This document shows positions 19,815 to 45,719 of a stretch of DNA of 64,000 bases, in pieces (position 1 is the stretch's first letter; each line of letters starts with the position of its first letter). The notes beneath the pieces are model-generated. The model was not told the origin of the DNA. It saw only the letters and a program-made list of their open reading frames with translations, and searched no databases. The position numbers and the translations under genes are program-made. Origin of the DNA: Embleya hyalina (GTDB lineage: Bacteria; Actinomycetota; Actinomycetes; Streptomycetales; Streptomycetaceae); NCBI RefSeq assembly GCF_003967355.1, contig NZ_BIFH01000040.1, positions 1-64,000 on the forward strand, read 5' to 3'.

Positions 19815-21719
19815 TCAGCCCCTCGTCGGCGGCGGTACCGCGGAGCGGCGGTGGATCCGGGAGCCCGGGGCGGTGACGATCAGGCTCCCGGCGTGGCCGG
19901 CCAGCGTGCGACAGGCGTCGGCCGGGGCCGATTCGCCGGGCAGCGGGACGAACGCGGCCGGCCCCACGATCGGCAGCCGGGTGCACAGCCGGCCGGCGCC
20001 GTCGGCGGCGTACAGCCGGCCGTTCATCGCGGCGAGCGCGATCGTGCCGCCCGCCGGGCCGAGCACGCGCCAGGGCGCGGGCGCCTCGGGGTCGGCGGGC
20101 AACTCGGTCGCGTACACGTGGTGCAGCGTGTCGGCGGCGTCCACCGCGAAGACGCCGCCGTCGCACAGCGCCAGCGCGAGGGTGCCCTCGGGCAGTCGGG
20201 CGACCGGAGTCCACGGCGCGGCCCGGGTCACCGGCGGCCGGCGCAGCAGCCGATCGTGCCCGCCGACCGCGTACACCTCCAGCGGCAGCGGACCGGCCGC
20301 CTCCCGCGCCGCGGCCAGGGCGCGTACCGTCGGCGCGGCGCCGATCGTCCGCCAGGGCAGGTTCTGCCCGCCGGTGTCGCGGCAGATCAGCGCTCCCTCG
20401 GTGTCCACCGCGAACAGCACGTCCTCGCAGGCGGTGAGCGCGTGGATGTCCGCGGCGGGGCCGATCACCTCCCACTGCGGTCGCGTGGCGGCGCCGAGCC
20501 GGTCCAGCACGTTGCGGGTGACCCGGTCGACCACCGGATCGGCCAGCGCACTGCCCCAGTTGATGGTGCCGGCGTTGAACACCGTGCCCGCGCCGAGCCG
20601 GAACGTGCCCATCACCGCGTCGCCACCCTGCCCGTAGCGCGCCCAGTGCCGCAGGTCGGCGGTGGCGAGCACGACGAACGACGGCGGGGTGCCGTCGCGG
20701 CCGGTGGTGCGCGGGACGCCCGTGCTCCAGTCCAGTTCGGCCGCGTCCGTCTCGTAGCCGAGCGCGCCCTGGGCGAACTTGTCGCCGTCCGCGAGGCCGG
20801 TGCCGGCGAACACCCAGTGGTCGGTGAACCGGGCGATGTACGCCTCCTCGCGGATCACCTTCATCCCCTCGCCCCACGCACCCGCGCCCCGCCGGAAGCT
20901 GAGCCCGGTCATCGTGTTCTCCGGCCGGTGCACCGGCGCGCTGGACCACTCCACGGTGACTCGTTCGGGATCGATCGCCGCCATCGGGTCGGCGACCGCG
21001 TCCCGGTGGCAGACCATGGTGCGGCCGTCGTCCTCCAGGCGCATCTGCCACCACGCGGTGTTCCCGGCGAAGATGGCCAGGTTGCCGCCGCGCCGGACGA
21101 ATCCCTCGACGCTGTCGCGCTGTTCCCGGGACCAGTACTCGTCGTGCCCGTTGATCACCAACAGCCGGTAGTGCGCCAGGAGTTCGTCACCACCGTGCAG
21201 ATCCAGGCCGGAACAGAACTCGACCGGGCGGCAGGTGGCCCGCAACCAGCGCTGCAGGCCCTCCTCCCAGCGCTCCGGCGGGGGCCCGCCCCCGGGCCGG
21301 TCGAACGCGACCCGGGCGGCCCGGTCCGGCTGCTCGGCGTAGTACAGCCCCAGGCCGGGCACGCCGGAGCGGTTGTACGCCTGCCAGGTGGCGAACGGCA
21401 CCGACACCAGGATCGGCGCGGCCGCGCCGGGGCGCGCCGCGCGGACCACGAACCAGGCCTCGTGGTCCAGGGGTTCGTCCCCGGCGAGCGGTGTGCCGTC
21501 GTCGAACACGGCCCGGTACAGCGAGCTGGGCCAGTCGGACGGGACGGGCAACTCCCAGTGTTCGCCGATCACTCGGGACCGGGCCAGGACGTGGTCGGTG
21601 GTCGCGTCGATGATCGTGACCTCGCCGCGCACCGGGCCGCCGTCGGTCGAGGCCAGATGGAAGCGCAGCCGGTCGCCCGCCGTGACGGACGTGGCACCGG
21701 CATACGCCAGGACGCTCAC
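19815..21719 (-). CDS. N,N-dimethylformamidase beta-subunit-like protein with C-terminal propeller-like repeats
   Basis: The protein has 634 residues. Residues 1-90 form a beta-sandwich-like region. Residues about 95-420 match the N,N-dimethylformamidase large-subunit fold: a GLGLYYAEQPDRAARV segment, GHDEYWSREQRDSVEGFVRR, then FAGNTAWWQMRLEDDGRT. In DMFase an iron held by two Tyr and one Glu hydrolyses an amide. Residues 430-634 hold four or five repeats of the type W-x-x-(I/L)-G...LYAxDxxGxL, like tachylectin or propeller blades. GTG at 21719 overlaps the previous stop by four bases, so it is the last gene of the NRPS operon. An amide-forming or amide-cleaving tailoring role is an inference. 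Confidence 0.82.
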   Translation of the reverse strand: MSVLAYAGATSVTAGDRLRFHLASTDGGPVRGEVTIIDATTDHVLARSRVIGEHWELPVPSDWPSSLYRAVFDDGTPLAGDEPLDHEAWFVVRAARPGAAAPILVSVPFATWQAYNRSGVPGLGLYYAEQPDRAARVAFDRPGGGPPPERWEEGLQRWLRATCRPVEFCSGLDLHGGDELLAHYRLLVINGHDEYWSREQRDSVEGFVRRGGNLAIFAGNTAWWQMRLEDDGRTMVCHRDAVADPMAAIDPERVTVEWSSAPVHRPENTMTGLSFRRGAGAWGEGMKVIREEAYIARFTDHWVFAGTGLADGDKFAQGALGYETDAAELDWSTGVPRTTGRDGTPPSFVVLATADLRHWARYGQGGDAVMGTFRLGAGTVFNAGTINWGSALADPVVDRVTRNVLDRLGAATRPQWEVIGPAADIHALTACEDVLFAVDTEGALICRDTGGQNLPWRTIGAAPTVRALAAAREAAGPLPLEVYAVGGHDRLLRRPPVTRAAPWTPVARLPEGTLALALCDGGVFAVDAADTLHHVYATELPADPEAPAPWRVLGPAGGTIALAAMNGRLYAADGAGRLCTRLPIVGPAAFVPLPGESAPADACRTLAGHAGSLIVTAPGSRIHRRSAVPPPTRG

Positions 21720-23179
21720 GCGACCGGCTCCGCCACCCGCTCCGCGAAGCCGGTCAGCGCGCCGATCGGCACCTCCCGCCCGGCGGCCGCGCGCACCAGC
21801 AGATCCTCCAGCGCGACCAGGTGCGCCTCCAGCGCGTGTACGGGCAGATAGGCGGTGTCGCCGGTGACGCTGACCACCAGCGCGTCGCCCTCGGCGACCA
21901 CGTGCAGGCAGTACCGGCAGGCGATGAACTCGTGCCCGCCCGCCGGTTCCACCCGACTTCGGGTGCGCGCCACGTCCAGTTCGGCGGCGGTCGGCTCGGG
22001 GCCCGGCTCCGGCGGCCGGTCCACCAGGCGCATGTCGTTGAAGCAGCAGAACGGCCGGATGGGCGTGCCGCGTTCGGCGGTGATCCTGGACATCAGCGCG
22101 TTCCACCGGTCGGGGTCGTAGCCCGCGCTGCGATACGCCCGCAGCGACGCCCGCCACGCGGCGGGAAGCAGGTCGGTGAAGCGCGCGTCGAGGTCCAGGT
22201 CGAGCACGAACAGCCCTTCCTGGGACAGTGTGGTGACCAAATCGCGGCTGTCCGCCCGGAAACGGTTGGCGACGATCGGCAGCATCACCGCGGTGTCCCG
22301 GCCGCCCGCGCGCGCCGCCAACACGGCCGCGCCCGCGAGCAACACCGCGGACGGGCTGACCCGATGGCGCAGCGCGACCGCGTCGGCGGCGCGGGCCAGG
22401 GCGGGGGAGACCAGGCGCACGGTGCGAAAGCGCGGCGCCGCCGGCTCGGCGACCACGTCCGCGAACACCGTCGGGGCGATCCGCCGATAGTGCGTCTCCC
22501 AGTGCGCGAGCGCCGATTCGCCCCGGCGCAGGCCGGTGGTCGTGGACTGCTCGTGGGCCAGGTCCAGTGGCGCACCCGCCGCCGGGCCGCCCGCCGATCC
22601 GCGACGGATCAGCAACCGCAGGTCGCGGACCAGGACTTCGACGCCGTGCCCGTCGGTGGCCACGTGACACAGGGCCAGTGCGATGTAGCGGACCCGGCCG
22701 CCGTGCACCACCAGGCCGACCCGGATCGGCCAGGCGTCGAAGTAGTCGAAGCGGGTGGCGCCCAGACGTTCGGCCACCGCCGCGGCGACCGTGTCCGCGT
22801 CCTCGATCAGCGCCGCCTCGAACACCTCCACCGGCAGCGTGCCCACCGAATGGCGGGCCTGTAGGGGCTCGCCGTCGGCGGGCACGAGCCGGGTGCGCAA
22901 CGCGTCGTGACGCTCCATCAGCCGGCCGAGCGCGGCGCTCGCCCGGGTCACGTCCACCGGGTGTCCGCGGTCGGCGATCGGTAATACGCGGGTCATGTTG
23001 AAGTAGTGGTCGCTGGGCGCGGTGCGCCGGATGGCCTGCCAGATGGCCCGCTGACCCCACGTCAGCGGCGCCCGGACCGGGTCGTCGGCGGAGACCGCGA
23101 AGGGTGCGGGCACCTCGTAGGGGGCCGCGACCGGTGTCCGGGCCGCGACCCGGGCTCTCGCCGACTCGTCCTCAACCAT
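21716..23179 (-). CDS. Free-standing NRPS condensation domain
   Basis: This 487-residue protein is a single condensation domain. LTWGQRAIWQAI is the C1 motif, RHDALRTRL the C2 motif and CHVATDG the catalytic C3 motif. The first histidine of the usual HHxxxDG is Cys, while the catalytic second His and the Asp remain. It should join an acyl or peptidyl group on one carrier to an amine or alcohol acceptor. Its start overlaps the carrier gene's stop by eight bases, so the two probably act together. An alternative role is chain release by condensation. Confidence 0.92.
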   Translation of the reverse strand: MVEDESARARVAARTPVAAPYEVPAPFAVSADDPVRAPLTWGQRAIWQAIRRTAPSDHYFNMTRVLPIADRGHPVDVTRASAALGRLMERHDALRTRLVPADGEPLQARHSVGTLPVEVFEAALIEDADTVAAAVAERLGATRFDYFDAWPIRVGLVVHGGRVRYIALALCHVATDGHGVEVLVRDLRLLIRRGSAGGPAAGAPLDLAHEQSTTTGLRRGESALAHWETHYRRIAPTVFADVVAEPAAPRFRTVRLVSPALARAADAVALRHRVSPSAVLLAGAAVLAARAGGRDTAVMLPIVANRFRADSRDLVTTLSQEGLFVLDLDLDARFTDLLPAAWRASLRAYRSAGYDPDRWNALMSRITAERGTPIRPFCCFNDMRLVDRPPEPGPEPTAAELDVARTRSRVEPAGGHEFIACRYCLHVVAEGDALVVSVTGDTAYLPVHALEAHLVALEDLLVRAAAGREVPIGALTGFAERVAEPVA

Positions 23180-23438
23180 CGCCCACCGCCACGCCGTGTC
23201 GGGTCAGGTGTGCCACCAGCGAGTCCAGGTCCTCGACGAAGTCCAGGTCGGCGTCCAGGTCGAAGAACACGTCGAACTCGCCCTCCAGGGCGTCGATCAG
23301 GCGCAGGAAGGTCAACGAACTCACGCCGGACGCGGTCAGCGGGCCGGTCGATTCCAACACCTCGTGCGCGCTCACCTCGCCCCCGCTCACGTCGGCGATC
23401 AGCGTGGCCACCCGTTCGCGCAGCGGGTCCGCCCTCAT
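23172..23438 (-). CDS. Free-standing acyl/peptidyl carrier protein
   Basis: This 88-residue helical protein has a carrier motif reading SGVSSLTFLRLIDALE, in which the phosphopantetheine serine is preceded by Ser instead of the usual Asp or His. The second half is strongly acidic (DVFFDLDADLDFVEDLDSL), typical of carriers. It overlaps the MbtH gene by four bases (ATGA) and the condensation gene by eight. It probably hands its substrate to the neighbouring condensation domain. Confidence 0.88.
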   Translation of the reverse strand: MRADPLRERVATLIADVSGGEVSAHEVLESTGPLTASGVSSLTFLRLIDALEGEFDVFFDLDADLDFVEDLDSLVAHLTRHGVAVGDG

Positions 23439-23668
23439 GCCGCGTCCCCGGCCAGTCGCCGACGCAGGCTCAACGGCCGGATGTCGGGCCAGACCCGGTC
23501 GATGTGCGCCGTGCACTCCTCGCGGGTGCCGACGAACCCGGTGGGCACCCAGCCGGCGGGCGGGTCGGTGCGCAGCGGCCACAACGAGTGTTGTTCCTCG
23601 TCGTTGACGACCACGCGGTAGGTCTCCTGGTCGGTCTCGGGGTCGAGGGGTTCGGGATCGTCGTGCAT
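23435..23668 (-). CDS. MbtH-like NRPS accessory protein
   Basis: This 77-residue protein has the full MbtH signature: NDEEQHSLWP, GWVPTGFVG, the C-x3-I segment and DIRPLSLR. MbtH proteins bind NRPS adenylation domains and support their folding and activity. The start shares one base with the NRPS stop (TGATG), so it is translated in step with the synthetase it most likely serves. Confidence 0.97.
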   Translation of the reverse strand: MHDDPEPLDPETDQETYRVVVNDEEQHSLWPLRTDPPAGWVPTGFVGTREECTAHIDRVWPDIRPLSLRRRLAGDAA

Positions 23669-26600
23669 CACGGCTCCTGGAGGTCGCGGACGGCGTCGGT
23701 CACGCCGCCGACGGTGGGGGTGTCGAAGAAGACGTCGAGCGGGACCTCGACGCCGAGGCGTTTGCGGATCCGGGCGGCGATCCGGGTGATGGTGAGCGAG
23801 TGGCCGCCGAGGTCGAACAGGTCCTCGTCCACGCCGATGTCGTCCAGGCGCAACACCTCGGCCCAGATCGTGCGCACGGCCTCGGTGAGGTCGTCGGCCG
23901 GGCCGACGACCGCGCGGAACGCGTCGGTGGGGTCGATCGGTTCGGGCCGGGTGGGTGCCGGTTCGGGCAGACGGGCCCGGTCCAGCTTGCCGTTGGGGGT
24001 CAGCGGGAAGGCGTCCAGGGCCAGGAAGCCGGTGGGCACCATGGCGCTCGGCAGGGTGCGGGCGAGGAAGGCGCGCAATTCGCCGGGGGCGACGGGGGGT
24101 CGTCCGGGCTCGGGGACGAGGTAGCCGACCAGGCGGGCGTGTTCGCCGTCCGGGTCGAGCAGTCGGATCGCCGCCTGGGCGATCCCGGGGTGTGCGGCGA
24201 GCCGGCTCTCGATCTCGCCGAGTTCGATCCGGTGTCCGCGCAGCTTGACCTGGGCGTCGGTACGCCCGACGTAGTCCAGGCCGCCGTCGGGCGCGTGCCG
24301 GACCAGATCGCCCGTGCGGTACAGGCGGGCGCCGGGCGGCCCGAACGGGTCGGCCACGAAGCGCTCGGCGGTCAGCCCCGGGAGGCCCGGGTAGCCGTGC
24401 GCGACGCCGTCCCCGCCCAGGAACAACTCGCCCACCAGGCCCTCGGGGACCGGATGCAGCCGGCCGTCGAGCACGTACGCGCGGGTGTTGGCCAGGGGCC
24501 GGCCGATGCCGGGCGCGGCCGCGGAGTCGACCTCGGCGTAGGTGGACCACACCGTCGTCTCGGTGGGTCCGTACACGTTGACCAACCGGCCCACCACGCC
24601 GCGTAGTTCGGCGGCCAGTGGGGCGGGCAGGGCTTCGCCGCCGGTGATCGCGGTCAGTCCCGGACGGTGCAGGCCGGCCGCGAGCAGCACCCGCCAGCCG
24701 CTCGGGGTGGCCTGGACGTGCGAGACGGCGTGCCGCTCCAACAGGGCCAGTTGGGCGTGTCCGTCCCGGTGCCGATCGTCGGGGACCAGTACCACCCGGG
24801 CACCGGTGGTCAGCGGCAGCAGGAGTTCGACCGTGGAGATGTCGAAGGACAGCGAGGTCAATCCGAGCCAGCGGTCGCCGGGACCGGCGCCGAGCCGGTC
24901 GCGCATGCTCGCGAGCAGGTTGGCCAGCGCGAGGTGCGGGATCTGGACGCCCTTGGGCCGCCCGGTCGAGCCGGACGTGTAGATCACGTACGCCGGATCG
25001 CTCGGCGCGGGCCCGGTGGGCGGCCGGACCCGACCGGGTTCGGCACCGAACAGGTCGGGCCCGTTCAGGTCGGGGGCGGCCAGGACGAGCGGTTCGGCGG
25101 GGGCGACGAGGCGGAGCCGGGCCGGATCGGCCGGAGCGTCCGGGACGATCGGTTCGGCGGGGGTGACGGGGTGGACCCGGGTCGGCTCCGCGGGTATGTC
25201 CGGAACGCGAGGGGCCGTGGCGTGCGCACCGGGGCTGCCCGGACCGTCGCTCGCCGGCGCACCCGTGTTCCGCACGATCGCCGCCACACGCGCGTCCGAC
25301 CGGATGAAGGCCAGCCGTTCGGCCGGATGGCCCGGGTCGAGCGGCAGGTACGCGGCGCCCGAGGCGAGCACGCCGAGGACGGCGGCGACCTGTTCGCCGG
25401 TGCGCGGCAGTTCGATCGCCACCAGGTCGCCCTGGCCGACCCCGGCCCGGTGCAGGCGCTCGGCGAACACGTAGGCGGCCGAGGCCACCTGGCGGTAGGT
25501 CAGGAACCGGCCCGAGCACACGACGGCGACCGTGTCGGGGGCCGCCGCGGCGCGCGCGGCGAACGACTCGACGACGGTGTCCCCCGCCGGATACGGCGTG
25601 TCGGTGGCGTTGTCGGTGTGCAGGACCCGGACCAGCTCCCGCTCGGACAGCAGCGGCAGGTCGCCGAGCGGCAGTTCGGGGTCGGCCAGCGCCGTGTTGA
25701 GCAGGGTGGCGAAGTGGCCCGGGATGCGCGCGGCCGCGTCCGGGACGAAGCCGTCCGTCGGTACGTGCAGCGCGCCGTCGATGCGATCCCGGCCCTCGAC
25801 CAGTTGCAGATGCGCGGTGTTGCGCGCGGTCGGCGGCAGCACGATCCACTCGACCCGGGTCTCCACCCCGGGGAAGACCGGCTCGACCACGCGGGTGCGC
25901 CGTCGATAGCTCACGGTCAGTTCGGTCAGCGCGGTCCTGGGGCCGAGGCCGCGCACGGTGTGGCTGTAGGGCACGTCGCGGAAGGCGTAGATCGCCCGCA
26001 GTTCGGCGCGCAGTTCGCGGGCGAACGTGCCGAAGCCCTGTTCGGCGCGCGGCCGGGAGGAGACCGGCAACTCGTTGACGTGCAGCCCGACCCGGCGCGC
26101 CTCGGCCGGGGTGCGGGTGGTGAGTTCCAGCGCGGTGCGCACCCGCGCGTTGCCGTAGCGGAACAGCAGCGCGTGCCAGGCGGCCAGCAGCAGTTCGAAG
26201 TGGGTCACACCGAGCCGCACGGCGCTCTCGTGCAGTGCGTCGACCGTTTCGGGGCCGAGGGTGAACGGGATCGTGGTGCCCGGCGCCGGTTCGCCGCCGG
26301 CCCGCGTGGTGGGCAGCAGCCCCGGCAGGATCGCCCGACCGGGTTCCTCGCGGTGCCGGGCCCAGACGCCGGTGGTGTCGGTGGCGGGGTATTCGGTCGA
26401 CGCCGCTCCGGCCCGGAACACGTCGGCCGTTCCGTGTCCGTCCGTGGTCGGGGTCGCCGGGATCCCGCCCTCGCGGGCCGCGCGGTAGGCCCGCGCCAGG
26501 GCCGCGACCACGATCTCCTTGGACGTGCCGTCGAAGATCACGTGATGCGCGGTCACCAGGAGCGTGTGCCGGTCCGGCGCGAGGGAGAACAGGGTGAAAC

Positions 26601-27042
26601 GGGCGAGTGGACCGGCGTACAGGTCGAAGGGGCGCCCCAGTTCGGCCCGGATCAGTGCCTCCAGGTCCGCCGCGTCGGCCCGTACCCGGCGCATCGGCGC
26701 GGGGGTCGTGGGCACCAGGCCCGGCGTGCCGTCGGCCTCGCCGACCGCCGCGGCCAGTATCGGGTGCCGCTCGATCGTGGCGGCGCACGCGCGCGCCAGC
26801 GCGTCCGGGTCGAGCGGGCCGTCGAAGCGCAGCAGCACCGAGAGGTGGTAGGCGGACCCGGCGGGCAAGGTGCGTTCGGTCACCCAGACGCCCAACTGGG
26901 CGGCGGACAACGGCGCGAAGGGCAGCGCGTCGAGCACCGGGCCGGGGGCGACGCCGGTGTCGACGCCGCCGGCCGTCGGGGCCCGGTGATCGTTCGGCGG
27001 AATACGATCGTTCCAGGGGATCTGATCGTTCGTCACAGTCAT
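23668..27042 (-). CDS. NRPS module C-A-PCP, predicted glycine-activating
   Basis: The protein has 1,124 residues. The condensation domain (about 40-460) has HHVIFDG. The adenylation domain (about 475-1020) has [25 protein letters not shown] and NGKLDR. The carrier (about 1045-1120) has LGGHSL. Aligned by eye to GrsA, the ten specificity residues read D-I-V-Q-I-G-V-V-W-K, very close to the glycine code DILQLG(L/I)(V/I)WK. A Pro/Ala-rich insertion of about 45 extra residues lies between core motifs A2 and A3. There is no epimerase or thioesterase, so the chain must pass to another protein, perhaps the free-standing condensation domain. The ATG at 27042 overlaps the ligase stop. Confidence 0.95.
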
Positions 27043-28553
27043 GGTCGGACCTCGTCGTCCAGGAGCCGGCGCAGCTCGCGCTTGAGGATCTTGCCGCCCT
27101 CGTTGCGCGGCAGGGATTCCCGGAACACCACGTGCCCGGGGAGTTCGTGGGCGGCGAGCCGTTCCATCAGGAACACCCGCAGCTCGGTCGCGGTCAGTTC
27201 GCCCCGGGGTACCACGACGGCCGCGACGGTCATCCCGAGCACGGGGTGCGGTACGCCGAACGCGGCCGCGTCCAGCACGCCCGGGTGCTCGTGCAGGGCG
27301 TCCTCGACCTGCAACGTGGAGACCTTGTACGCACCGGACTTGATCACGTCCCGCTCGCGGTCGACCAGGTACAGGAAACCCTCCGCGTCCAGATAGCCGA
27401 GGTCGCCCATGCGTACCCAACGCCCGGAGAAGACCCGGGAGTCGGCCTTCTCGCCGTAGTACGAGCGGGGCGTGGTCGGGGTGCGCAGCCAGACCTCCCC
27501 GGTCTCCCCGACCGGCAACACCCGCCCGCGCTCGTCGGTCACCCGCAGGTCGCGCAACGACGCGGGTCGGCCCGGCGAGCCGGGGTTTTCGGGGTCGAAC
27601 AACATCGTGGTCTGCGCGGGCGCGGCCTCGGTGGAGGTGTAGTAGTTGACGATCTGTGCCTGGGGGAACAGCCGGGCCAGGCCCACCGCGACCCGGCGCG
27701 GCAGGGCGGCGGCGGTGGAGCCGAGCAGGCGCACGCTGGACAGGTCGTGGCGGTGTGCCCGGTCCGCGCCGAGTAGTTCGACGGCCATCGCCGGCACCAC
27801 GAACACGCTGCCCACCGCGTGCCGTTCGATCAGGCGGGCGAAGTGTCCCGGGGTGAAGCGCGGGGCGGCGATCGCGGTCGCATTCGCGTCGAGCGCGTTG
27901 ATCAGCATGGTCTGCCCGGCGTTGGTGCCCACCGGGTACGCGTGCAGGAAGTGCGTGGAGTGGCCGAGCGGGCGGCGGCGCGCGTCCAGCGTGCAGCCGT
28001 AGGCCAGGTTGGCGTGCGTCGCGGCGACTCCCTTGGGGGTGCCGGTGGTTCCGGAGGTGTACAGGATCTGCGCGAGATCGCCGGGGGCCGGAGCCGGCAG
28101 GGCGCCGACGGGGTAGGTCTCGATGTCCTCGACCGGGGCGGTCCACGCGCCGGTGCCCGCGTCCGGCGGGACCGACTCGGCGCGGTGCAGCACTGCCGCG
28201 GCGCCGCTGTGCGCGAGCAGATGCCGCACCTCGGCCGGGGCGAGCCGGTCCGACATCGGCACCGCGACCGCGCCGGCGCGCTGTACGCCCAGGTACGCGG
28301 TCGCGTAGTCGATCCAGTCGCCGTTGCCGTACAGGAGCGCGACCCGATCGCCCGCGCCGATGCCGCGCTCGGCCAGCCCGGCGGCGACCGCGTCCGCGCG
28401 GTAGTGCCAGGAGCCGAACGTCAACTTCTCGCGCCCGCTGAGGATCGCGGGTCGGTCCGGCTCGATCTCGGCGCGATGCGCGAGCAGTGCGGGCAGACTC
28501 TCCGGTGCGCGGCGGCCGGCGGCCGTCGGTCGGGGTCGGATTCCGATGCTCAT
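27039..28553 (-). CDS. Acyl/aryl-AMP ligase (ANL superfamily)
   Basis: This 504-residue adenylate-forming enzyme has [11 protein letters not shown] (AMP-binding P-loop), [19 protein letters not shown] and the C-terminal GGKILKREL lysine. It activates a carboxylic acid as its adenylate and loads CoA or a carrier. The sequence is closer to acyl/aryl ligases than to amino-acid A domains. ATGA overlaps at both ends show tight co-translation with the condensation fragment before it and the NRPS after it. It probably supplies the acid joined to glycine. Confidence 0.9.
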
Positions 28554-28972
28554 CTCGACACCTCCGCGAGGGCGGGCACCGACTCGGCGGCCCGGACCCG
28601 GATCCGACGTTCGCGCTCCCGGACGCCGACCTCGTCGTCGGGGGGCGCTTCCGGTGCGTCCCGGTCGAAGCCGGCGTCGACCCGCTCGGCGAGTATGCGG
28701 GCCGGGGTGGCGGCACTCGGCCCGGCCGGGTCCACGATCTCGATCGGAACCGGGCCGGGCGGTGCCACCACGGCGACGGGGCGTCCCCCGTCGTCGGGGA
28801 ATCGGGTGCGCGGCGCGTCGTGTCGGGCGACGACGCCCGCGAACGCGACACGTGGCGCCTCGATGTCCGGCGGGCCGGACGGGCGCACCGACCACGGGAT
28901 GTTCCCGGCGGCCCGGGTCGACTCGGTCCGCTCCCGGGACCCGGTTCGGGACAGCGTGTGCTCGTCGTCCAT
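28550..28972 (-). CDS. Incomplete condensation-domain-like protein
   Basis: The 140-residue protein has [20 protein letters not shown], matching the C2 motif and next strand of NRPS condensation domains, then [10 protein letters not shown] and an [12 protein letters not shown] helix. Motif C1, the catalytic HHxxxDG and the whole C-terminal lobe are absent, and the last 40 residues are charged. It cannot be a working condensation enzyme on its own. It is the first gene of the NRPS operon and its stop overlaps the ligase start by four bases, so it is still translated or retained for coupling. It is a remnant or a repurposed domain. Confidence 0.65.
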
Positions 28973-29139
28973 GTCGACCCCCTCGCCACCATCGCCCGAG
29001 GGACCTCACGCGCCGACCGAACGGCGGTGCCCTCATCCCGTTTCCGCGATCCGACGCGGCCGTCGGCTCGCGGCACGGCGGCGCGTCGGACGGCCTGTCG
29101 TCGCCCGATCGAAGTCCGCCCCCGTGGCGTGCGTCGGCA

Positions 29140-29202
29140 ACGCTAGGAGTGCCATCGACACAGTGTCAATGGTCTATACCAAACCGACTATTGGTCCAGA
29201 CC
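29140..29202 (-). promoter_or_regulatory. Promoter and operator-like palindromes of the NRPS operon
   Basis: On the minus strand TTGACA (29169-29164) and TAGCGT (29145-29140) lie 18 bases apart, a good vegetative promoter about 165 bases before the first gene. GACAC-A-GTGTC (29157-29167) overlaps the -35. Upstream, 29171-29202 is an interrupted palindrome: GGTCT-2-ACCAA-8-TTGGT-2-AGACC. Both are candidate regulator sites. Confidence 0.6.
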
Positions 29203-29318
29203 TCAAATCAAGCGGAACGGGACCGACCGGCCCGGACACCAACCGGGTGTTAACGATCGGGGTGTTCGAACAGGCGTCGGTGCAAGGGGAATCGGGGTGG
29301 ATTCGAGCCGGACTCGGC

Positions 29319-30230
29319 TCAGCTTCGGAGCAGGTCGATCAGCCCCGTCCCGCTCTCGTTCCCGTGTCCGTCGGCGACCCGACGCTCCATCAGGGTCAGG
29401 TAGGGGAGCAGCAGTGCGGGATCGACCCCCTGTTCGGCGGCGGTGCGCAGGAGGGTCGGCGCGCCCGCGAGTTGCATCGCGAGCGTGGAGGCCACGCCCG
29501 AGACGTAGTCGTCGGCCGCCAGTTGGGCCGCCGTGCGGTGCGCGGCGGGCGCCATCGCGGTCAGCCACTCGGCGAGCAGCGGGGCGAAGGCGGTCGGGTC
29601 GACGGCCTCTTCGCGCACCAGTGCGAAGGCGTGTGTGATGCCGGCGAACATCCCGGTCATCGCACTGAGCAGGGCCACGTCGTGCAACGCGGCGAAACCG
29701 GCGTCGGCGCCCACGTAGCGGCCCGCCGCCGGTACGGCGAGGATGTCGCCGTGGGTGTCGAAGACGTCCCGGGAGCCGCTGTAGAAGACGTAGCCGCCGG
29801 CCCCGGGGACGCCGATCATCGGCGGGATCGCCATCACCCCGCCGGCCAGGAAACGGGCCCCGCGCTCGGCGGCCCGGGCGGCGCCGGCGCGGGCCTCGGC
29901 GGGGGTGGTCGTGGTCAGGTCGACCAGGTCCCGACCGGCGAGGTCGACACCGGCCAGGGCCTCCTCGACCGAGGCGTGGTCGAGCAGGCACACCACGACC
30001 AACTCGGCCGAGGCCACCGCCTCGGCGGCGCTCGCGGCGACGGTCGCCCCTGCGGCGGCGAACGGCTCGGCCCGGCTCGGGGTGCGGTTCCAGACGGTCG
30101 GCGCGTGTCCGGCGGCGAGCCAGGCGCGGGCCAGAGCGCCGCCCATGGCACCCAGGCCGAGCACGGCGAGCGGGGTCTTCGGGGTGGCTGCGGGCACGGT
30201 GGGATCGGTCGTTCGAGTGTCGGGTTCCAT
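29319..30230 (-). CDS. Imine-reductase-like NADP-dependent dehydrogenase (6PGDH/beta-HAD superfamily)
   Basis: The 303-residue protein has an N-terminal Rossmann fold (AVLGLGAMGGALARAWLAAGH, VWNRT) for NADP. The middle reads GGVMAIPPMIGVPGAG and VFYSGSRDVFD, characteristic of imine reductases rather than 6-phosphogluconate or beta-hydroxyacid dehydrogenases. AALHDVALLSAMTGM places an Asp where imine reductases carry their proton-donor residue. It could reduce a cyclic imine in the cluster product, but it is also often found alone. The ATG at 30230 is divergent from the HxlR-type regulator. Confidence 0.82.
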   Translation of the reverse strand: MEPDTRTTDPTVPAATPKTPLAVLGLGAMGGALARAWLAAGHAPTVWNRTPSRAEPFAAAGATVAASAAEAVASAELVVVCLLDHASVEEALAGVDLAGRDLVDLTTTTPAEARAGAARAAERGARFLAGGVMAIPPMIGVPGAGGYVFYSGSRDVFDTHGDILAVPAAGRYVGADAGFAALHDVALLSAMTGMFAGITHAFALVREEAVDPTAFAPLLAEWLTAMAPAAHRTAAQLAADDYVSGVASTLAMQLAGAPTLLRTAAEQGVDPALLLPYLTLMERRVADGHGNESGTGLIDLLRS

Positions 30231-30389
30231 GCCGATTAGGCTGGTCACGGGCGTCCGGGCGGGCAAGTACGCACTTGGAAGTGGGTACTCGCGAGACGCC
30301 GGTCGCCGGGATCGCCCGGCGGCCCCGGAGCGGGGCCGCACCCGGCGGGAGTGGCACGTGCACGGGCGACGAGCGGGCGGAGGACGGAC

Positions 30390-31142
30390 ATGACGGGAAC
30401 GGGCGGCGACAGGGGCAGGGGCAGGCCGGGGGCGTACGTCTGCGGTATCGATGCGGCCATGGGGGTGGTCGGCGGGAAGTGGAAGGTGCTCATCCTGTGG
30501 GCGCTGAACGAGCACCCGTGCCGCTTCGGCGAGCTGCGCCGGTTGGTACCCGGCATCACCGAGAAGGTACTGGCCTCGCACCTGCGGGAGTTGGAACTGG
30601 ACGGCATCGTGCATCGCGAGCAGTTCGACGAACTGCCTTTGCGGGTGGAGTATTCGCTCACCCCGCTGGGCACGTCGCTGAACCGGGCGCTGGGTCCGCT
30701 CGGTGCGTGGGGGCGGGCGAACCTCCTGGGCGACGCGTCCGGGGACGGCGCCGACACGGACCGGCTGATCACCCTGTCGGTGGTCGGCGACCGTACCGAA
30801 CTCACGGACCGGGAATGGGCGTTGCTCGCGCCGCTCTGGCCCGCGTCCGGACCCTTCGCCGACCGGGGACCGGATCTGCGACGGATCGTCGACGGTGTGC
30901 TGTACCGGATGCGGACCGGGGTGCGCTGGTCCGACCTCCCGCCCCGGTTCGGGCCGTGGCGGACGGTCGCCGCGTGCCGGCGCCGCTGGCTCGCCGACGG
31001 CACGTGGGCGGAGGTCGTCCGGGTGTTGCGAGACCGCCTCCAGGCGGTCGGCGGGGACGACGCGGAGGTGCTGCGCGGCCTGATCGGCCGGTTGGGCGAG
31101 GTGGCCCGGCAACCACGACCGGTGGTCGTCGGCCGGGGATGA
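30390..31142 (+). CDS. HxlR-family regulator fused to an IS5-type transposase N-terminal domain (DUF4096)
   Basis: The protein has 250 residues. Residues 15-110 are an HxlR winged helix-turn-helix: CGIDAAMGVVGGKWKVLILW, FGELRRLVPGITEKVLASHL and LRVEYSLTPLG. Residues 128-215 match the transposase-associated DUF4096: LTDREWALLAPLWP, RRIVDGVLYRMRTGVRWSDL and FGPWRTVAACRRRW. No DDE catalytic domain follows. The reading frame is continuous, so this is a real fusion or a captured transposase fragment. The ATG at 30390 has GGAGG. It is divergent from the imine-reductase-like gene, its likely target. Confidence 0.85.
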   Translation: MTGTGGDRGRGRPGAYVCGIDAAMGVVGGKWKVLILWALNEHPCRFGELRRLVPGITEKVLASHLRELELDGIVHREQFDELPLRVEYSLTPLGTSLNRALGPLGAWGRANLLGDASGDGADTDRLITLSVVGDRTELTDREWALLAPLWPASGPFADRGPDLRRIVDGVLYRMRTGVRWSDLPPRFGPWRTVAACRRRWLADGTWAEVVRVLRDRLQAVGGDDAEVLRGLIGRLGEVARQPRPVVVGRG

Positions 31143-32393: not shown

Positions 32394-32480
32394 CGGCTCT
32401 CCGTCAGCGGCGTCGAGGGTGGTCGCGCCACTGTAACCGCCACGGAAGGGCAAAGATGTGGCCTCGATCCCGGGGTGCTC

Positions 32481-34156: not shown

Positions 34157-35280
34157 AGGCGGTCGGCGGTGATCGGAATCCCGCTACGGCGGACGGATTC
34201 GGCGTTCCCGGCGCACCCGGCGCGGCCGGACCGAACGGAACGCATGGCGGCACCGAAGCCGCCGGTGCGCTCCGTACACCCGGCACCCTTCCCGCGCCGG
34301 AGCGGGTGTTCGCCCGCTCCGGCGCGGGGACGGGGGAATCCTTCGTGTGCGGCATCGACTTCGGCGGCACCAAGATCGCGGTGGCCACCGCGCGGCCGGA
34401 CGGGACGGTGCTGGCCGGCGAGCGGCTGGACACCGACGCACGCGAGGGCGCCGAGCAGGCGGTTCGGCGGGCGATGCACGTGGCGCGCGACCTGGTCGCG
34501 CGGACCGCGGCCGATACCGGCGGGCACTGCTCGGCGGTGGGCGCGGTCAGCCCCGGAATCGTGCTGCCCGACCGGGTGTTGCTCGCGCCCAACGTGCCCG
34601 GTTGGCAGGATCTGGCGCTCGCGGCCACCCTGGCCGAGGGTTTCGACCTGGAGCCCGAGCGGGTCGCGGTCGGCAACGACGGCAAGGCCGCGGCCCTGGC
34701 CGAATCCCGCTGGGGTGCGCTGCGCGGCGCGGATCCGGCGATCCTGCTCACCCTCGGCACCGGGATCGCCGCGGCGATCGTGCTCGGCGGGCGGGTCCTG
34801 GCCGGTGCGAACGGCGCCGCGGGCGAGATCGGTTACCTGCTTCGGGACCGCGCGGACATCGGATTCGGCGCCGGACGCGCGCCGTTGGAGGAGTACACCG
34901 CCGGCAGCGGCCTGGGCTGGCGTGGCGGCGAACTGCTCGGCCGTGAGGCGGATGCCGCCGCGCTGTTCACGGACCCGGATCCGCGCGTGCGGGCCATGGT
35001 CGACGAGGCGCTGGACGAACTCGCGGTCCACGTCGCCAATCTGGCGATCACGATCGACGCGGAACGCATCGCGATCACCGGCGGGCTGATGCGTTCCGCA
35101 CCGCGCGTGCTGGCCGCGCTGCGTGCCCGCATCCGCACCGCGGTGCCGTTCCCGCCGGTGGTCGTCCCGGCCCGCTTCCTCCAGGACGCGTCCCTGCGGG
35201 GCGCCCTGTCACTCGCCGCCGAATTGCCGCACCTGCCCACGGCCACCGCCGGGGCGGCCTCGAATGCCGGGCGACCGTGA
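34153..35280 (+). CDS. ROK-family kinase/glucokinase-like protein
   Basis: The protein has 375 residues. After a 65-residue low-complexity Gly/Pro/Ala leader comes the ROK kinase fold: CGIDFGGTKIAVATARPDG (phosphate 1), VGNDGKAAALAE (where the kinase catalytic Asp is usually in GNDxxAA), LTLGTGIAAAIV (phosphate 2) and NGAAGEIGYL. It has no helix-turn-helix, so it is a sugar kinase or a kinase-like protein. ATGA overlap with the APC permease suggests transport and phosphorylation of the same compound. Confidence 0.88.
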   Translation: MKAVGGDRNPATADGFGVPGAPGAAGPNGTHGGTEAAGALRTPGTLPAPERVFARSGAGTGESFVCGIDFGGTKIAVATARPDGTVLAGERLDTDAREGAEQAVRRAMHVARDLVARTAADTGGHCSAVGAVSPGIVLPDRVLLAPNVPGWQDLALAATLAEGFDLEPERVAVGNDGKAAALAESRWGALRGADPAILLTLGTGIAAAIVLGGRVLAGANGAAGEIGYLLRDRADIGFGAGRAPLEEYTAGSGLGWRGGELLGREADAAALFTDPDPRVRAMVDEALDELAVHVANLAITIDAERIAITGGLMRSAPRVLAALRARIRTAVPFPPVVVPARFLQDASLRGALSLAAELPHLPTATAGAASNAGRP

Positions 35281-35394
35281 GGGCTCGCCCCGGCCCGATA
35301 CCCGCCCGGAATCGGCCCGAACGACAGGAGAATTGCGGATCGGATTAGTCCGGTACGCGGGCCGGGAGCGTACCGGGCGCGCGCACGATCCACC

Positions 35395-35441: not shown

Positions 35442-35453
35442 CGTTCGCCTGCA

Positions 35454-35543
35454 CGAATTCGACGCCGCGCCGAATTCGTGCGCCGCACGCGCGATATGCG
35501 CGTCGGAATTCGTCCGCACCCGGACAACGGCCGCTCCGAATTC
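35454..35543. repeat. Cluster of four GAATTC-core palindromes
   Basis: CGAATTCG occurs at 35454, 35471 and 35537, and GGAATTCG at 35505: four AT-core palindromes within 90 bases of otherwise G/C-rich DNA upstream of the PKS gene. Such clustering suggests multiple binding sites for one regulator. Confidence 0.55.
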
Positions 35544-35650
35544 GCCGCACCCGGTGACCGATGGCGGCCGATACCGGGCGACTTCCGCCGGCTCCCGACA
35601 ACGCCCGCCGCACGTCGGCGTTCGCATCCCGATCGAAATGATCGACCGAT

Positions 35651-35694
35651 AAGACCCTTTCGTCTTGACAAGATGTGCGCCCCACCCGCACCAT
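35651..35694 (+). promoter_or_regulatory. Putative PKS-operon promoter
   Basis: TTGACA at 35665 lies inside the palindrome TCTTG-A-CAAGA (35663-35673). AAGAC-6-GTCTT lies just before it. A weak -10 candidate, CACCAT, is 18 bases downstream. It points to the PKS start about 90 bases on. Confidence 0.45.
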
Positions 35695-35781
35695 GCACAC
35701 GCATACGCGCGCCATGGTCACCGCCTGTGTGCGCAACGGTCGGCATGTGGCGGCCCATTCGGTGTGCGGGGGTAGGTGCGG

Positions 35782-41817
<6,036 letters not shown>

Positions 41818-41909: not shown

Positions 41910-43787
41910 ATGACCGAGCACGCCCGGCGAACAGCCCTGGGACACGCACCCCTTCCACCCATCGAGCCCGCCTTCCCCGACCCCGCCAAGCTGTTCGCCG
42001 ACGTGCTCTTCGATCCGCCGGCCGGGCCCGACGCGGCGATCGCCGGGCCGGTCCGCGACGCGCTGACCTACCGTCGGGTGCGGTGGCTGCACGAGCGCAT
42101 ATCCGGCGAGGATCCGCTCCTGCACCATCCCGCGTACCTGCGCGAACTGCTCGAACTCGCCGCGATGGTGGACCCGAGCGTGTTCCATGTGATGTTCCTG
42201 CACCACTGCATGACCCTCGGCCCCGCCCTGGACTTCGGCGCGAGCCCCGAGGACATCGCCGAACTGGCCCTCGGCCCCTCGATCGGCGCCGCGCTGATGA
42301 CCGAGGTGGGCCGGGGCAACAGCGCCGCCGGCATCCGCACGGAGGCGGTCTGGGACCCCGTGGGCCAGGTGTTCGACCTGCACACCCCGGACGCCGGGGC
42401 CTGCAAGTACCCGCCCAACGTGGGGCTCTCCGGCATTCCCCGAGTGGCGGTCGTCGGCGCGCGGATCGTGGTGGACGGCATCGGCCGGGGTACCGGGCTG
42501 TTCCTGGTGCCGCTGCGGGACGAGGCCGGCCCGTGCCCCGGGGTGGTGATCACGCCGCGACCGCCGACCGGCCTGCTGCCGCTGGACTACGCCGCCGTAC
42601 GCTTCGACCACGTCCCGGTGCCCGCCGCCCGCTGGTTGCGCGACGGGGCCACGATCACCGCCCCCGGCGAGCGCGGCGGCGGCCATCACGACCCGCTCGA
42701 TCCGGCGGCCCGCAGCCGCCGCAGCCAGGGCCAGAGCAGGTTCGCGTGGGGAGCGATCGCGACCGGGATGGCCGCCGTCACCCGCGCCGCCACCGCGATC
42801 GCCCTCGCCCACGCCCACCGGCGCCGCACCGTCGGCCGCTTCGATCCACAAACCCCGGCGCTGGCCCACCGCAACCAGCAGCGCGCGCTGTTCGGCGCCC
42901 ACGCGGCGGCCCTGACCGCGACGGTGCTGGCCCGCCGGGCGACCGACCTGTGCTGGCGGTTGCCGGTGCACCGGGCGGCCGATCGGGGCCTGCCCCCGAC
43001 GACGATGCGCACTGCCTCGCTGCTCAAGGTGACGACCGATCGACTCGCCGAACAGGCCGTGTCGCGCTGCCGGCGGGCGTGCGGCGCGTTCGGCTTCTTC
43101 ACCGAGAACCGGCTGATCGACTACCAGGGCCTGGCGATGGCCTTCAACGCGGCGGGCGGCGACAACCAGTTGATCCTCCTCGACGCGGGCTGGTCGATGG
43201 CGACGGGCGTCGACTACGAGCCCCCGGCCGTCGCCGACGCTCCCGGCGACGCCCACGCCCGTGACGACGCCGAAACCCCTGCCGGCGCCGACGCCCCGGG
43301 CCGCTCCACCGAACCCCTCGAACGCCCCGGCTGGGCCGACCTGTTCCGCACCCGCGAGCGACTGCTGCACGAAGAACTCGTCGAGCGGCTGCGGCTCGGC
43401 GCGGAGCGGGGAGTCGACCCGTTCGTCCTGCGCAACGACTGCGCCGACGCCGCCGAGCGCCTGGGCGAGGCGCACGCGGCGCGGATCACCGTCGAGGCGC
43501 TGATCCACGACGCCCGCGCCACGTTCGCACACCGGGTGGCCGAGTCGGTGCTCGACGACCTGTGCCTGCTCCGGGTCCTGGAGGAGGTCGCGGCGCACGA
43601 CGGCTGGTTCCTGGCCGCCGGCCTGCTCACCGCCGACGAGGTCCGCGGCCTGTCGGCCCGGATCGACACCGCGTGCGCCCGACTGGCTCCGCACGCCCGG
43701 GCGTTGATCGAGCTGCTGGACGTACCGCCGGGCCTGGTCCGGGGCGCCCTGGTCGGGGACGACCCGATCGGCGACCCGACGAGGTGA
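41910..43787 (+). CDS. Acyl-CoA oxidase/dehydrogenase-family protein
   Basis: The 625-residue flavoprotein resembles acyl-CoA oxidases. The N-terminal helical part has FHVMFLHHCMTLGPALDFG, and the middle beta domain EVGRGNSAAGIRTEAVWDP and KYPPNVGLSG. FGFFTENRLIDYQGLAM lies near the usual FAD/catalytic region, and the C-terminal oxidase-type helical extension is present. It would oxidise an acyl-CoA or acyl-carrier at C2-C3. The ATG at 41910 has CAGGAG. It lies 92 bases after the PKS on the same strand, so it probably tailors the starter acid or PKS product. Confidence 0.85.
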   Translation: MTEHARRTALGHAPLPPIEPAFPDPAKLFADVLFDPPAGPDAAIAGPVRDALTYRRVRWLHERISGEDPLLHHPAYLRELLELAAMVDPSVFHVMFLHHCMTLGPALDFGASPEDIAELALGPSIGAALMTEVGRGNSAAGIRTEAVWDPVGQVFDLHTPDAGACKYPPNVGLSGIPRVAVVGARIVVDGIGRGTGLFLVPLRDEAGPCPGVVITPRPPTGLLPLDYAAVRFDHVPVPAARWLRDGATITAPGERGGGHHDPLDPAARSRRSQGQSRFAWGAIATGMAAVTRAATAIALAHAHRRRTVGRFDPQTPALAHRNQQRALFGAHAAALTATVLARRATDLCWRLPVHRAADRGLPPTTMRTASLLKVTTDRLAEQAVSRCRRACGAFGFFTENRLIDYQGLAMAFNAAGGDNQLILLDAGWSMATGVDYEPPAVADAPGDAHARDDAETPAGADAPGRSTEPLERPGWADLFRTRERLLHEELVERLRLGAERGVDPFVLRNDCADAAERLGEAHAARITVEALIHDARATFAHRVAESVLDDLCLLRVLEEVAAHDGWFLAAGLLTADEVRGLSARIDTACARLAPHARALIELLDVPPGLVRGALVGDDPIGDPTR

Positions 43788-43934: not shown

Positions 43935-45719
43935 ATGAACCCTGCACCTTCGACGGCCGTCCCGACCGGGATCGACCCCGAGTACCTGTCCGATCCGGAC
44001 GCCGACCGTATCCGCGCGTTGATCGACCACGTGTGCGGACACGGCGCGGCGGACATCCTCCGGGCCGCGCTGCCGCCGGGAGTCCCCGACGCGGTCGTGG
44101 ACATGGTGTCCCGGCACTGCCGCTTCGACCACGCCGCGCTGCTCGTCTTCCCGGAGCGGCTCGGCGACCTGCTCGACCGCCTGCCGCACTGGGGATTACG
44201 CACCACCGAGGTCGTGCCCAGCACGGTCGTCCGCGACCGGATCGCCGAACGCCTGGGCCTGCGCGCGGAGTCGGTCGAGGTACACATCGTGCGCTGCGCG
44301 CTGCCCGGCGACGGGGTCGCCGCCTGCGAGGGCCGCAATCTCGAACTGTTCGCCGTGGCACCGGTTCCGGGGGCCGACTTCGCCCGACTACGGGCCGAGG
44401 AGCGTGCCCGCAACGGCGAGACACACTTCGCCTTCCGCGTGGTCGAGCCGACTCCGATCACCCTCCTGGACCTGCACGACCTGCTGGTCTCCCGGGACGA
44501 GGTGCGCCGGGACGGCGGCGGCTTCAATCCGCACGAGGACACCTTCGTGCTGTACTTCCGCAGCATCGGCGAACCGGCCTCGGACCGCTGGCCGCGCCGC
44601 TTGGAGATCCTTGCCACCGGTTCGTATCCCGAGGTGCTGCGGCGTCACGCGGCACCGCGCCCGGCGGCGGGTCGGGCCGGTTCGCCGCCACGCGAGGATT
44701 CGTCGCGCGAGGACCCGACGCGGGAGATGTTGCACCTGGTCACCGGCGCGTGGGTGACCCAGGCGATCGGTGTCGCGGCGCGGTTGGGCCTGGCCGACCA
44801 CCTCGGCGACGGGTCCCGGTCGGTGGCCGACCTGGCCGAGGCGGCGGGCGCGGAACCGGACCGCCTGGGGCGGCTGTTGCGCCTGTTGGCCGGGCACGGG
44901 GTGCTGCGGGCCGAGGCGGACGGGCACTATCGGCTCACCGAGCGCGGCGCGCTGCTGCGCACCGAGCGGGACGGATCGTTGGCCGCACTGGCGGATCTGT
45001 ACAGCGGTCTGTTCTTCACGTCGTATCTCGGCCTGGAGCACACGGTGCGCACCGGCGAGGACGCGTTCACCCGGGTGCACGGCCGGGAGTCGTTCGAATA
45101 CTTCGCCGAACACCCGGACGACGCACGGCTGTTCCGGGAGGCGATGGCGTTCGGCACGGTCGTCTTCGACGCGGTGCCGGCCGCTCTGGACCTGCCGCCG
45201 GGCGCGACGGTGGTCGATGTCGGGGGTGGCGACGGGGAGTTGCTCCTCCGCGTGTTGCGCGACCATCCGAGCGCGCGCGGGGTGCTCTTCGAGCAGGGGC
45301 ACGTGGTCGAAGCCGCCCGGGAGTTGCTGGCCGTGTCGGCCGCGGCGGATCGGTGCGACCTGGTGGTCGGCGACTTCTTCACCGGCGCCCTGCCCGATGG
45401 CGCCGATTTGTACCTGCTGGCCCGGATCCTGCACGACTGGGCGGACCCCGAGTGCCTGGTCGTGTTGCGGGCACTGGCCCGGGCGATGCCGGCCGACGCA
45501 CGTCTGGCGATCGTCGAACGGCCGATCGTCGAGGCGGGCGGGTCGGTGTTGCCGCTGCGCTTCGACATCCAGATGATGACCAACGCCCGGGGCCGCGAAC
45601 GCACGGTGGCGGAGTATCGCGCGTTGTTGGCCGAGGGCGGCTTCGAACTGCTCGACCTGCGACCGCTGCCGCTGGACATGGCGGTACTCACCGCCCGACC
45701 GCGTCCCGCGCAGGGGTAG
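43935..45719 (+). CDS. Two-domain SAM-dependent O-methyltransferase with an N-terminal domain of unknown type
   Basis: The protein has 594 residues. Residues 260-590 form a class I O-methyltransferase of the plant/actinomycete type: a dimerisation helix set (GAWVTQAIGVAARLGLADHL), SAM motif VVDVGGGDGELLLRVL and ARILHDWADPE near the catalytic base. Residues 1-230 are a separate alpha/beta domain (CRFDHAALLVFPERLGDLL, HWGLRTTEVVPSTVVRDRIA, THFAFRVVEPTP). Its paired beta-alpha-beta pattern hints at a VOC/glyoxalase-like fold, but I cannot place it. It is the last gene of the PKS arm. Confidence 0.85.
   Translation: MNPAPSTAVPTGIDPEYLSDPDADRIRALIDHVCGHGAADILRAALPPGVPDAVVDMVSRHCRFDHAALLVFPERLGDLLDRLPHWGLRTTEVVPSTVVRDRIAERLGLRAESVEVHIVRCALPGDGVAACEGRNLELFAVAPVPGADFARLRAEERARNGETHFAFRVVEPTPITLLDLHDLLVSRDEVRRDGGGFNPHEDTFVLYFRSIGEPASDRWPRRLEILATGSYPEVLRRHAAPRPAAGRAGSPPREDSSREDPTREMLHLVTGAWVTQAIGVAARLGLADHLGDGSRSVADLAEAAGAEPDRLGRLLRLLAGHGVLRAEADGHYRLTERGALLRTERDGSLAALADLYSGLFFTSYLGLEHTVRTGEDAFTRVHGRESFEYFAEHPDDARLFREAMAFGTVVFDAVPAALDLPPGATVVDVGGGDGELLLRVLRDHPSARGVLFEQGHVVEAARELLAVSAAADRCDLVVGDFFTGALPDGADLYLLARILHDWADPECLVVLRALARAMPADARLAIVERPIVEAGGSVLPLRFDIQMMTNARGRERTVAEYRALLAEGGFELLDLRPLPLDMAVLTARPRPAQG

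What the first reader, a model, noticed from the sequence alone, without database searches (positions are those of the whole stretch)
19815..45719. Unrecognised two-armed NRPS/PKS gene cluster
Seven overlapping leftward genes (C fragment, AMP ligase, C-A-PCP, MbtH, carrier, C domain, DMFase-like) face a rightward arm (ligase-ACP-KS-AT-ACP-TE, acyl-CoA oxidase, two-domain methyltransferase). Two acid-activating ligases, one glycine module and one methylmalonyl extension imply a small acyl-glycine/beta-keto hybrid. The DMFase-like protein beside a free-standing carrier and condensation pair is not an arrangement I know from described pathways.
Basis: partly seen in the sequence, partly recalled or inferred. 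Interest (0 to 1): 0.85.

Follow-up and report, generated by a model that had tools for sequence, protein, structure and literature searches.

The report
Broken peptide-making cluster beside unrelated one
The region holds two separate natural-product gene clusters of a soil actinomycete (genus Embleya); one belongs to a widespread peptide-making family with an unusual iron-amidase-like enzyme, but here it has lost its two largest genes, so its product cannot be read from what is left.

Summary
The genes reported are there, at the stated coordinates. The one-cluster reading fails. The arms lie about 6.8 kb apart with five other genes between. Of 119 relatives searched, 10 carry the left-arm DMFase-like gene, 3 carry most of the right-arm oxidase, and 1 (G002) carries both. 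The left arm is a truncated member of a conserved eight-gene cluster: NRPS1 (C-A-T), NRPS2 (C-A-T-TE-MFS), ligase, C-A(Gly)-T, MbtH, carrier, free C, DMFase-like. Against sister genome G002 the window lacks 8,348 bp at an 8-bp microhomology. The 'C fragment' is the in-frame fusion scar of NRPS1's start and NRPS2's end. Both NRPS genes remain in 14 of 17 loci, window included. So 'one glycine module' describes what survived a deletion, not the pathway. Relatives predict acyl-Gly-(basic residue)-Ser or Asp. The DMFase-like protein has the fold of dimethylformamidase and N-acetyl-beta-Phe acylase, with the catalytic His and ligand Glu invariant in 26 of 26, plus a C-terminal beta-propeller. Likely an N-deacylase; unproven. 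No paper linking DMFase-like proteins to NRPS was found in the open library.

The parts
19815..21719 (-). DMFase-like protein, 634 aa: DMFase-fold metallo-amidase domain plus C-terminal beta-propeller
   Evidence: PF20254 5.4e-68; AF2 model pLDDT 88.6; Foldseek top hits 8i5a, 6lvb; propeller hits for about residues 415-626; H192/E194 aligned with H519/E521 of 6lvb
21716..23179 (-). free-standing condensation protein, motif CHVATDG
   Evidence: PF00668 4.4e-17; sequence
23172..23438 (-). free-standing carrier protein
   Evidence: PF00550 5.7e-4, just below cut-off; GVSS serine site
23435..23668 (-). MbtH-like protein
   Evidence: PF03621 3.3e-19
23668..27042 (-). NRPS C-A-PCP, glycine-type code DIVQIGVVWK
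27039..28553 (-). stand-alone acyl-AMP/CoA ligase
   Evidence: PF00501 1.3e-66
28663..28670 (.). junction of the 8,348-bp deletion relative to G002, 8-bp microhomology
29319..30230 (-). reductive-aminase-like NAD(P)-binding protein; between the arms, not assigned to either
   Evidence: PF21761/PF03446; conserved in G002
30351..31142 (+). HxlR-type regulator fused to DUF4096 transposase-type domain; between the arms
31155..32453 (-). ROK-family repressor; between the arms
32621..34156 (+). amino-acid permease; between the arms
34153..35280 (+). ROK-family kinase; between the arms
35782..41817 (+). separate cluster: PKS ligase-ACP-KS-AT-ACP-TE
41910..43787 (+). separate cluster: acyl-CoA-oxidase-like flavoprotein
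   Evidence: PF22924/PF01756
43935..45719 (+). separate cluster: O-methyltransferase with unassigned N-terminal half

Best explanation
Two unrelated biosynthetic clusters lie side by side. The left one is a deletion derivative of a conserved eight-gene NRPS cluster. In intact relatives (shown) the order is NRPS1 (C-A-T), NRPS2 (C-A-T-TE-MFS), ligase, C-A(Gly)-T, MbtH, carrier, free C, DMFase-like. The likely intact pathway (inferred): the ligase charges the free carrier with an unidentified acid; the Gly module, then NRPS1 (basic residue), then NRPS2 (Ser, or Asp in other lineages) build an acyl-Gly-X-Ser/Asp peptide; the TE releases it and the fused MFS exports it; the free C protein and the DMFase-like amidase add and later remove an N-acyl cap, or otherwise mature an amide. 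In the window NRPS1 and NRPS2 were removed by one 8,348-bp microhomology deletion that fused their ends in frame (shown by comparison with G002), so this copy lacks elongation, release and export and probably makes no mature product on its own (inferred). The right arm is a PKS/oxidase/methyltransferase set that occurs without the left arm in G027 (three genes together) and G029 (PKS and oxidase together) (shown).
For: The deletion is precise and in frame against G002. G001, G002, G072 and G056 carry NRPS1+NRPS2 in the missing place, and 14 of 17 loci do in all (window counted, L154 left out as too short and L155 as a different architecture). The own genome has no close copy of the missing DNA: its best long matches are 66-69% identical and belong to a paralogous cluster on C38 (the query held all but about the first 170 bp of the missing stretch). 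The scar drifts (dN/dS 0.63 over 79 codons; leucine-to-proline changes in the C-domain stretch) against 0.07-0.57 in the six remaining genes, 0.57 being the 77-codon MbtH. Arms separate: G001 has the left arm and the ROK/permease genes but no PKS; 1 of 119 relatives has both arms; no ACOX or KS-AT hit in 34 DMFase-like loci. A-domain codes agree across lineages. NRPS2 domains of G002, including TE and MFS. DMFase fold, and His/Glu invariant in 26 of 26.
Against: The deletion is seen in one assembly only; reads could not be checked. The remaining genes show no significant relaxation on the window branch (N/S 84/132 against 48/104 in G002, Fisher p 0.15; flanking controls 30/60 against 31/80, p 0.44), so the remnant may still do something, or the deletion is young. 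In the same stretch of NRPS1, intact G002 against G001 also gives a high dN/dS (0.49), which weakens the drift argument. In G002 the arms are together as in the window. The free carrier is just under its Pfam cut-off. The deacylase role rests on fold and motif; the two iron-ligand tyrosines could not be aligned. The link of DMFase-like gene and cassette is not strict: L145 and L148 lack the DMFase-like gene, and L081, L082, L085, L049 and L050 have it without a free C or carrier hit in view.
Confidence: 0.82

Rival explanations
1. The remnant still works with the paralogous assembly line on C38 of the same genome (ligase-T-C, C-A(Gly-like)-T, C-A(DTED-type)-T, C-A(DFTKIGHVGK)-T-TE-MFS, MbtH), which has no DMFase-like gene and no close free C gene; the window's ligase, carrier, C and DMFase-like proteins act in trans on its peptide.
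For: The C38 line belongs to the same family (50% identity to NRPS1 and NRPS2, 47% to C-A-T, 53% to the ligase), has no broken gene in view, and is found in 4 of 4 Embleya genomes, own included (in pieces in G003). The window's DMFase-like gene is the only hit at E<=1e-20 in the own genome. The remnant is not measurably relaxed.
Against: G001 and G002, with an intact left cluster, also have the C38 line, so the two lines coexist and C38 need not depend on the remnant; no direct evidence of crosstalk. The Gly assignment on C38 is by similarity only; one search gave no code for that module.
Confidence: 0.12
2. One reading: both arms form one hybrid pathway.
For: Neighbouring in the window and in G002, with the intervening genes conserved.
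Against: Of 119 relatives 10 have the left gene, 3 have most of the right one, 1 has both; the right-arm genes stand without the left arm in G027 and G029; five other genes lie between; G001 has the left arm and the intervening ROK/permease genes without the PKS.
Confidence: 0.04
3. The deletion is an assembly artefact and the cluster is intact in the strain.
For: One draft assembly of 78 contigs; NRPS modules are repetitive.
Against: Only 8 bp are shared at the junction, too short to mislead an assembler; no close copy of the missing DNA on another contig; the scar carries further changes, including a second in-frame loss of 30 codons.
Confidence: 0.05
4. In intact clusters the DMFase-like protein is not a deacylase but forms or rearranges an amide, or hydrolyses a formamide.
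For: The characterised DMFase acts on formamides (PMC7686228).
Against: The closest fold match is an N-acetyl-beta-amino-acid acylase. I saw no formyltransferase among the genes that were annotated, but did not search for one.
Confidence: 0.3

Closest known systems
N,N-dimethylformamidase large subunit (Paracoccus, PDB 6lvb; PMC7686228)
   Same: Fold (Foldseek 4.6e-16); H519 and E521 align with the invariant H192 and E194.
   Different: 775 aa, and the characterised enzyme has a second, small subunit; the window protein has 634 aa with a C-terminal beta-propeller and lies among NRPS genes; Tyr ligands not aligned.
N-acetyl-(R)-beta-phenylalanine acylase (PDB 8huy, 8i5a)
   Same: Best fold match (4.8e-17) and the same HxE motif.
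   Different: About 18% identity over the aligned fold; no NRPS link known to me.
NRPS prodrug-maturing hydrolases such as XcnG/ClbP and PvdQ (recalled, no call)
   Same: Would play the same role, removing an N-terminal acyl cap.
   Different: Serine peptidases or Ntn hydrolases by recall, not the DMFase fold.
Paralogous NRPS cluster on C38 of the same genome
   Same: Ligase, Gly-like module, DTED-type module, terminal module similar to NRPS2 over its length, MbtH.
   Different: No DMFase-like gene; ligase, carrier and C are fused.

Membership tests
Eight-gene NRPS / DMFase-like cluster family defined here | carrier, free C and DMFase-like genes in tandem | tested here: met
   Window 19815-23438; among 28 named loci the DMFase-like family occurs in 26, the C family in 23, the carrier family in 22 and the ligase family in 19
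Eight-gene NRPS / DMFase-like cluster family defined here | ligase, Gly C-A-T and MbtH upstream | tested here: met
Eight-gene NRPS / DMFase-like cluster family defined here | NRPS1 and NRPS2 (TE-MFS) present | tested here: not met
   Deleted in the window; present in 14 of 17 loci. The window is therefore a derivative, not a complete member
DMFase-fold amidohydrolases | overall fold | tested here: met
DMFase-fold amidohydrolases | catalytic His and ligand Glu (H519, E521 of 6lvb) | tested here: met
   H192 and E194 invariant in 26 of 26, aligned
DMFase-fold amidohydrolases | two tyrosine iron ligands (Y399, Y440) | tested here: inconclusive
   Y115 and Y126 are invariant in 26 of 26 but no alignment reaches them
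N,N-dimethylformamidase proper | activity on DMF with a small subunit | not testable with these tools
   needs protein; a small-subunit gene was not searched for
Single two-arm NRPS/PKS cluster | arms co-occur in relatives | tested here: not met
   1 of 119 relatives has both
MIBiG-described pathway | matching entry | not testable with these tools
   MIBiG not held; only paper searches

The most novel reading that the evidence does not exclude
Ligase, carrier, free condensation protein and DMFase-fold iron amidase form a transferable 'acyl on, acyl off' cassette. It puts an N-acyl guard on an amine or peptide and removes it with a metalloamidase not linked to NRPS chemistry in the papers searched. 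It occurs with varied assembly lines, and once with no NRPS within view (Kitasatospora indigofera L072: DMFase-like, C, ligase, carrier). In the window the cassette outlived its own assembly line and may serve the paralogous line on C38.
Probability: 0.25. Interest if true: 0.75.

Novelty: new variant of a known kind. Interest (0 to 1): 0.5.

Why it matters
An actinomycete NRPS family found in Streptomyces, Kitasatospora, Embleya, Nonomuraea, Planobispora, Catellatospora and others carries an enzyme of the DMFase fold that I could not find described in natural-product biosynthesis, and a terminal module with thioesterase and exporter in one protein. The window also shows why a product should not be predicted from one genome: the neat 'glycine-only' arm is what a deletion left.

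Tried and rejected
One pathway spanning both arms: rejected on co-occurrence. The missing NRPS DNA elsewhere in the genome: long matches only at 66-69%. Relaxed selection on the whole remnant: not significant. Paper searches: (dimethylformamidase + nonribosomal peptide + biosynthetic gene cluster) 0; (DUF6605) 0; (NRPS with MFS) 0; one paper (PMC7686228); (dimethylformamidase alone) 13 papers, listing seen only, none on NRPS by title or abstract start; (acylase/DMFase terms) 0; (Embleya + NRPS) 18 papers, 12 listed, of which only PMC13152386 was opened for passages; one hit, listing only; (code strings) 0. PDB sequence search with the single DMFase-like protein gave only a chance hit; profiles were needed. 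The specificity of the DTED-type domain is left as 'basic-like': the key is recalled and no call confirms it. My notebook gives the deletion as 8,340 bp; recounted from the coordinates it is 8,348.
Full report
What is there. The window is contig C40, bases 1-64000, of a 12.05-Mb genome in 78 contigs. On the minus strand seven ORFs overlap by a few bases: scar ORF, ligase, C-A-PCP, MbtH, carrier, C, DMFase-like. On the plus strand lie a PKS (ligase-ACP-KS-AT-ACP-TE), an acyl-CoA-oxidase-like protein and a methyltransferase. Between them, 29319-35280, are five other genes: a reductive-aminase-like protein, an HxlR-DUF4096 fusion, a ROK repressor, an amino-acid permease and a ROK kinase. The genus is Embleya: G001, of the same genus, has the contig length of Embleya scabrispora DSM 41855. 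G002, with 8 contigs and a 1,247,984-base contig, fits the description of E. scabrispora NF3 in passages of PMC13152386; this last match is inferred.

The arms are separate. In 120 genomes, own included, the DMFase-like protein is found at 48% identity or more in ten relatives (G001, G002, G003, G034, G045, G056, G065, G072, G081, G083; G034 is cut by a contig end and has one stop inside). Hits of about 29-43% elsewhere are weaker DMFA2_C-type matches. The right-arm oxidase is at 92% in G002 and 55-56% in G027 and G029; G015 has only a 119-residue stretch at 55%; hits at 27-38% elsewhere are weaker relatives. Only G002 has both arms. G001 has the left arm and the ROK repressor, permease and ROK kinase but no PKS, oxidase or methyltransferase before the next shared gene. 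In G027 the three right-arm genes lie together, in the order methyltransferase, PKS, oxidase, and its PKS has the same domains; in G029 PKS and oxidase lie together, with only a weak methyltransferase match nearby. None of 34 DMFase-like loci has a right-arm ACOX or KS-AT hit, with at most 10-kb flanks and some cut by contig ends; of 14 further loci one (L142) has a weak 37% oxidase hit at its edge and no PKS hit.

The left arm is a deletion derivative. In G001, G002, G072 and G056 the operon has eight genes: NRPS1 and NRPS2 stand before the ligase. NRPS2 is C-A-T-TE-MFS in one protein of 1,878 aa in G002. Aligned to G002, the window breaks at 28663-28670: one side ends at G002 19831, the other starts at 28172, with CTTCGACC on both sides. 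8,348 bp are missing. The scar has a second in-frame loss of 30 codons and several leucine-to-proline changes. dN/dS in its NRPS1 part is 0.63 over 79 codons; the intact G002/G001 pair gives 0.49 there, so this is only suggestive. The remaining six genes give 0.07-0.57 against G002; the 0.57 is MbtH with 77 codons. A branch test shows no significant relaxation. No close copy of the missing DNA was found on another contig of this genome; the query lacked about its first 170 bp.

Conservation. Of 17 loci of this architecture (window; G001, G002, G072, G056; L142-L153), 14 keep both NRPS1 and NRPS2, sometimes cut by the edge of the stretch; in G072 and G056 NRPS2 was judged by place and length. 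The window, L148 and L152 do not: L152 has lost ligase and NRPS2, and L148 lacks NRPS1 and the C-A part of NRPS2. L145 and L148 lack the DMFase-like gene. L154 (short) and L155 (other architecture) were left out of this count. The free C protein at 43% or more (best hit) is in 15 of 391 genomes of the order, own included. Among 28 named loci, clustering finds the DMFase-like family in 26, C in 23, carrier in 22, ligase in 19, the Gly-module family in 11 (one, L080, with another code), TE-MFS NRPS in 10, MbtH in 9, a C-T protein in 9, and E1-alpha, E1-beta and E2 subunits in 6, 5 and 5 (domains were tested in one member each). L081, L082 and L085 have the DMFase-like gene without these neighbours, and L049 and L050 have it with a TE-MFS NRPS but no free C or carrier hit in view. 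Kitasatospora indigofera L072 has only DMFase-like, C, ligase and carrier in view, with a contig end 4 kb upstream; Dactylosporangium fulvum L070 has only C and DMFase-like.

Assembly logic. A-domain codes, read by alignment with the key positions recalled from memory, are constant: Gly type in the C-A-T module, DTED(I/V)G.. in NRPS1, Ser type DVWHVSLVDK in NRPS2, or DFTKIGHVGK (Asp-like) in other lineages. So intact clusters probably make acyl-Gly-X-Ser or acyl-Gly-X-Asp. The acid is unknown: the ligase is a generic acyl-CoA/AMP ligase by NCBIfam and PDB hits, all NCBIfam hits being below their cut-offs.

The DMFase-like protein. The AF2 model (26 sequences, pLDDT 88.6, pTM 0.91) matches N-acetyl-(R)-beta-phenylalanine acylase (8i5a, 4.8e-17) and dimethylformamidase (6lvb, 4.6e-16), then beta-propellers; by sequence profile the propeller part is about residues 415-626. 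In DMFase the iron is held by Y399, Y440 and E521, with H519 needed for activity (PMC7686228; passages and the first of three parts of the text seen). Counting along the HMM alignment, H519 and E521 meet H192 and E194 of the window protein, invariant in 26 of 26. Y115 and Y126 are also invariant but unaligned. An N-deacylase that removes a cap set by ligase, carrier and free C is the simplest role; it is inferred.

A second line. The same genome has, at C38 from about 21.1 to 36.8 kb, a paralogue with no broken gene in view: ligase-T-C, C-A-T (47% to the window's Gly module), C-A-T (DTEDIGTVIK), C-A-T-TE-MFS (DFTKIGHVGK) and MbtH, without a DMFase-like gene (TE and MFS of the last gene by 50% identity to NRPS2 over its length). 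It is in 4 of 4 Embleya genomes, own included, in pieces in G003. It may make the loss of the C40 line tolerable, or use its leftovers.

Verdict. The genes are real, but the 'two-armed cluster' is two clusters, and the left one is broken in this assembly. The family behind it looks undescribed in the papers that could be searched, which is not a test against MIBiG.

Noticed in passing
window 30351-31142 (+): HxlR-type regulator fused to a DUF4096 (IS4/5 transposase-type) domain; the stretch is also in G002, 82% by a tblastn made with a badly framed query.
   Followed up: partly
G000 C38 about 21109-36755 (L059/L060): Paralogous NRPS line with TE-MFS-like terminal module, in 4 of 4 Embleya genomes, own included; a LanC-like/DUF4135 gene lies next to it.
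   Followed up: partly
L051, L052 (G083): A different cluster type with a DMFase-like gene beside a peptidase S66 protein, carrier, stand-alone A domain and, in L051, PhyH and an aldehyde-dehydrogenase/LuxC-like protein.
   Followed up: no
L152, L148, L145: Partial losses in related clusters: ligase+NRPS2 (L152), NRPS1+DMFase-like gene (L148), DMFase-like gene alone (L145).
   Followed up: partly
L069, L073-L075, L079, L085, L086, L089: Shared neighbours: a ROK-like regulator, ABC sugar-transporter-like genes (by look only) and a GH3 enzyme (Pfam in L069); the window also has ROK genes nearby. Possibly only synteny.
   Followed up: no
window 43935-44750 (+): N-terminal half of the methyltransferase has no recognised domain.
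   Followed up: no
window 18201-18299 (-): ARAGORN tRNA-Ala(CGC) call inside an ORF-dense stretch, probably false.
   Followed up: no
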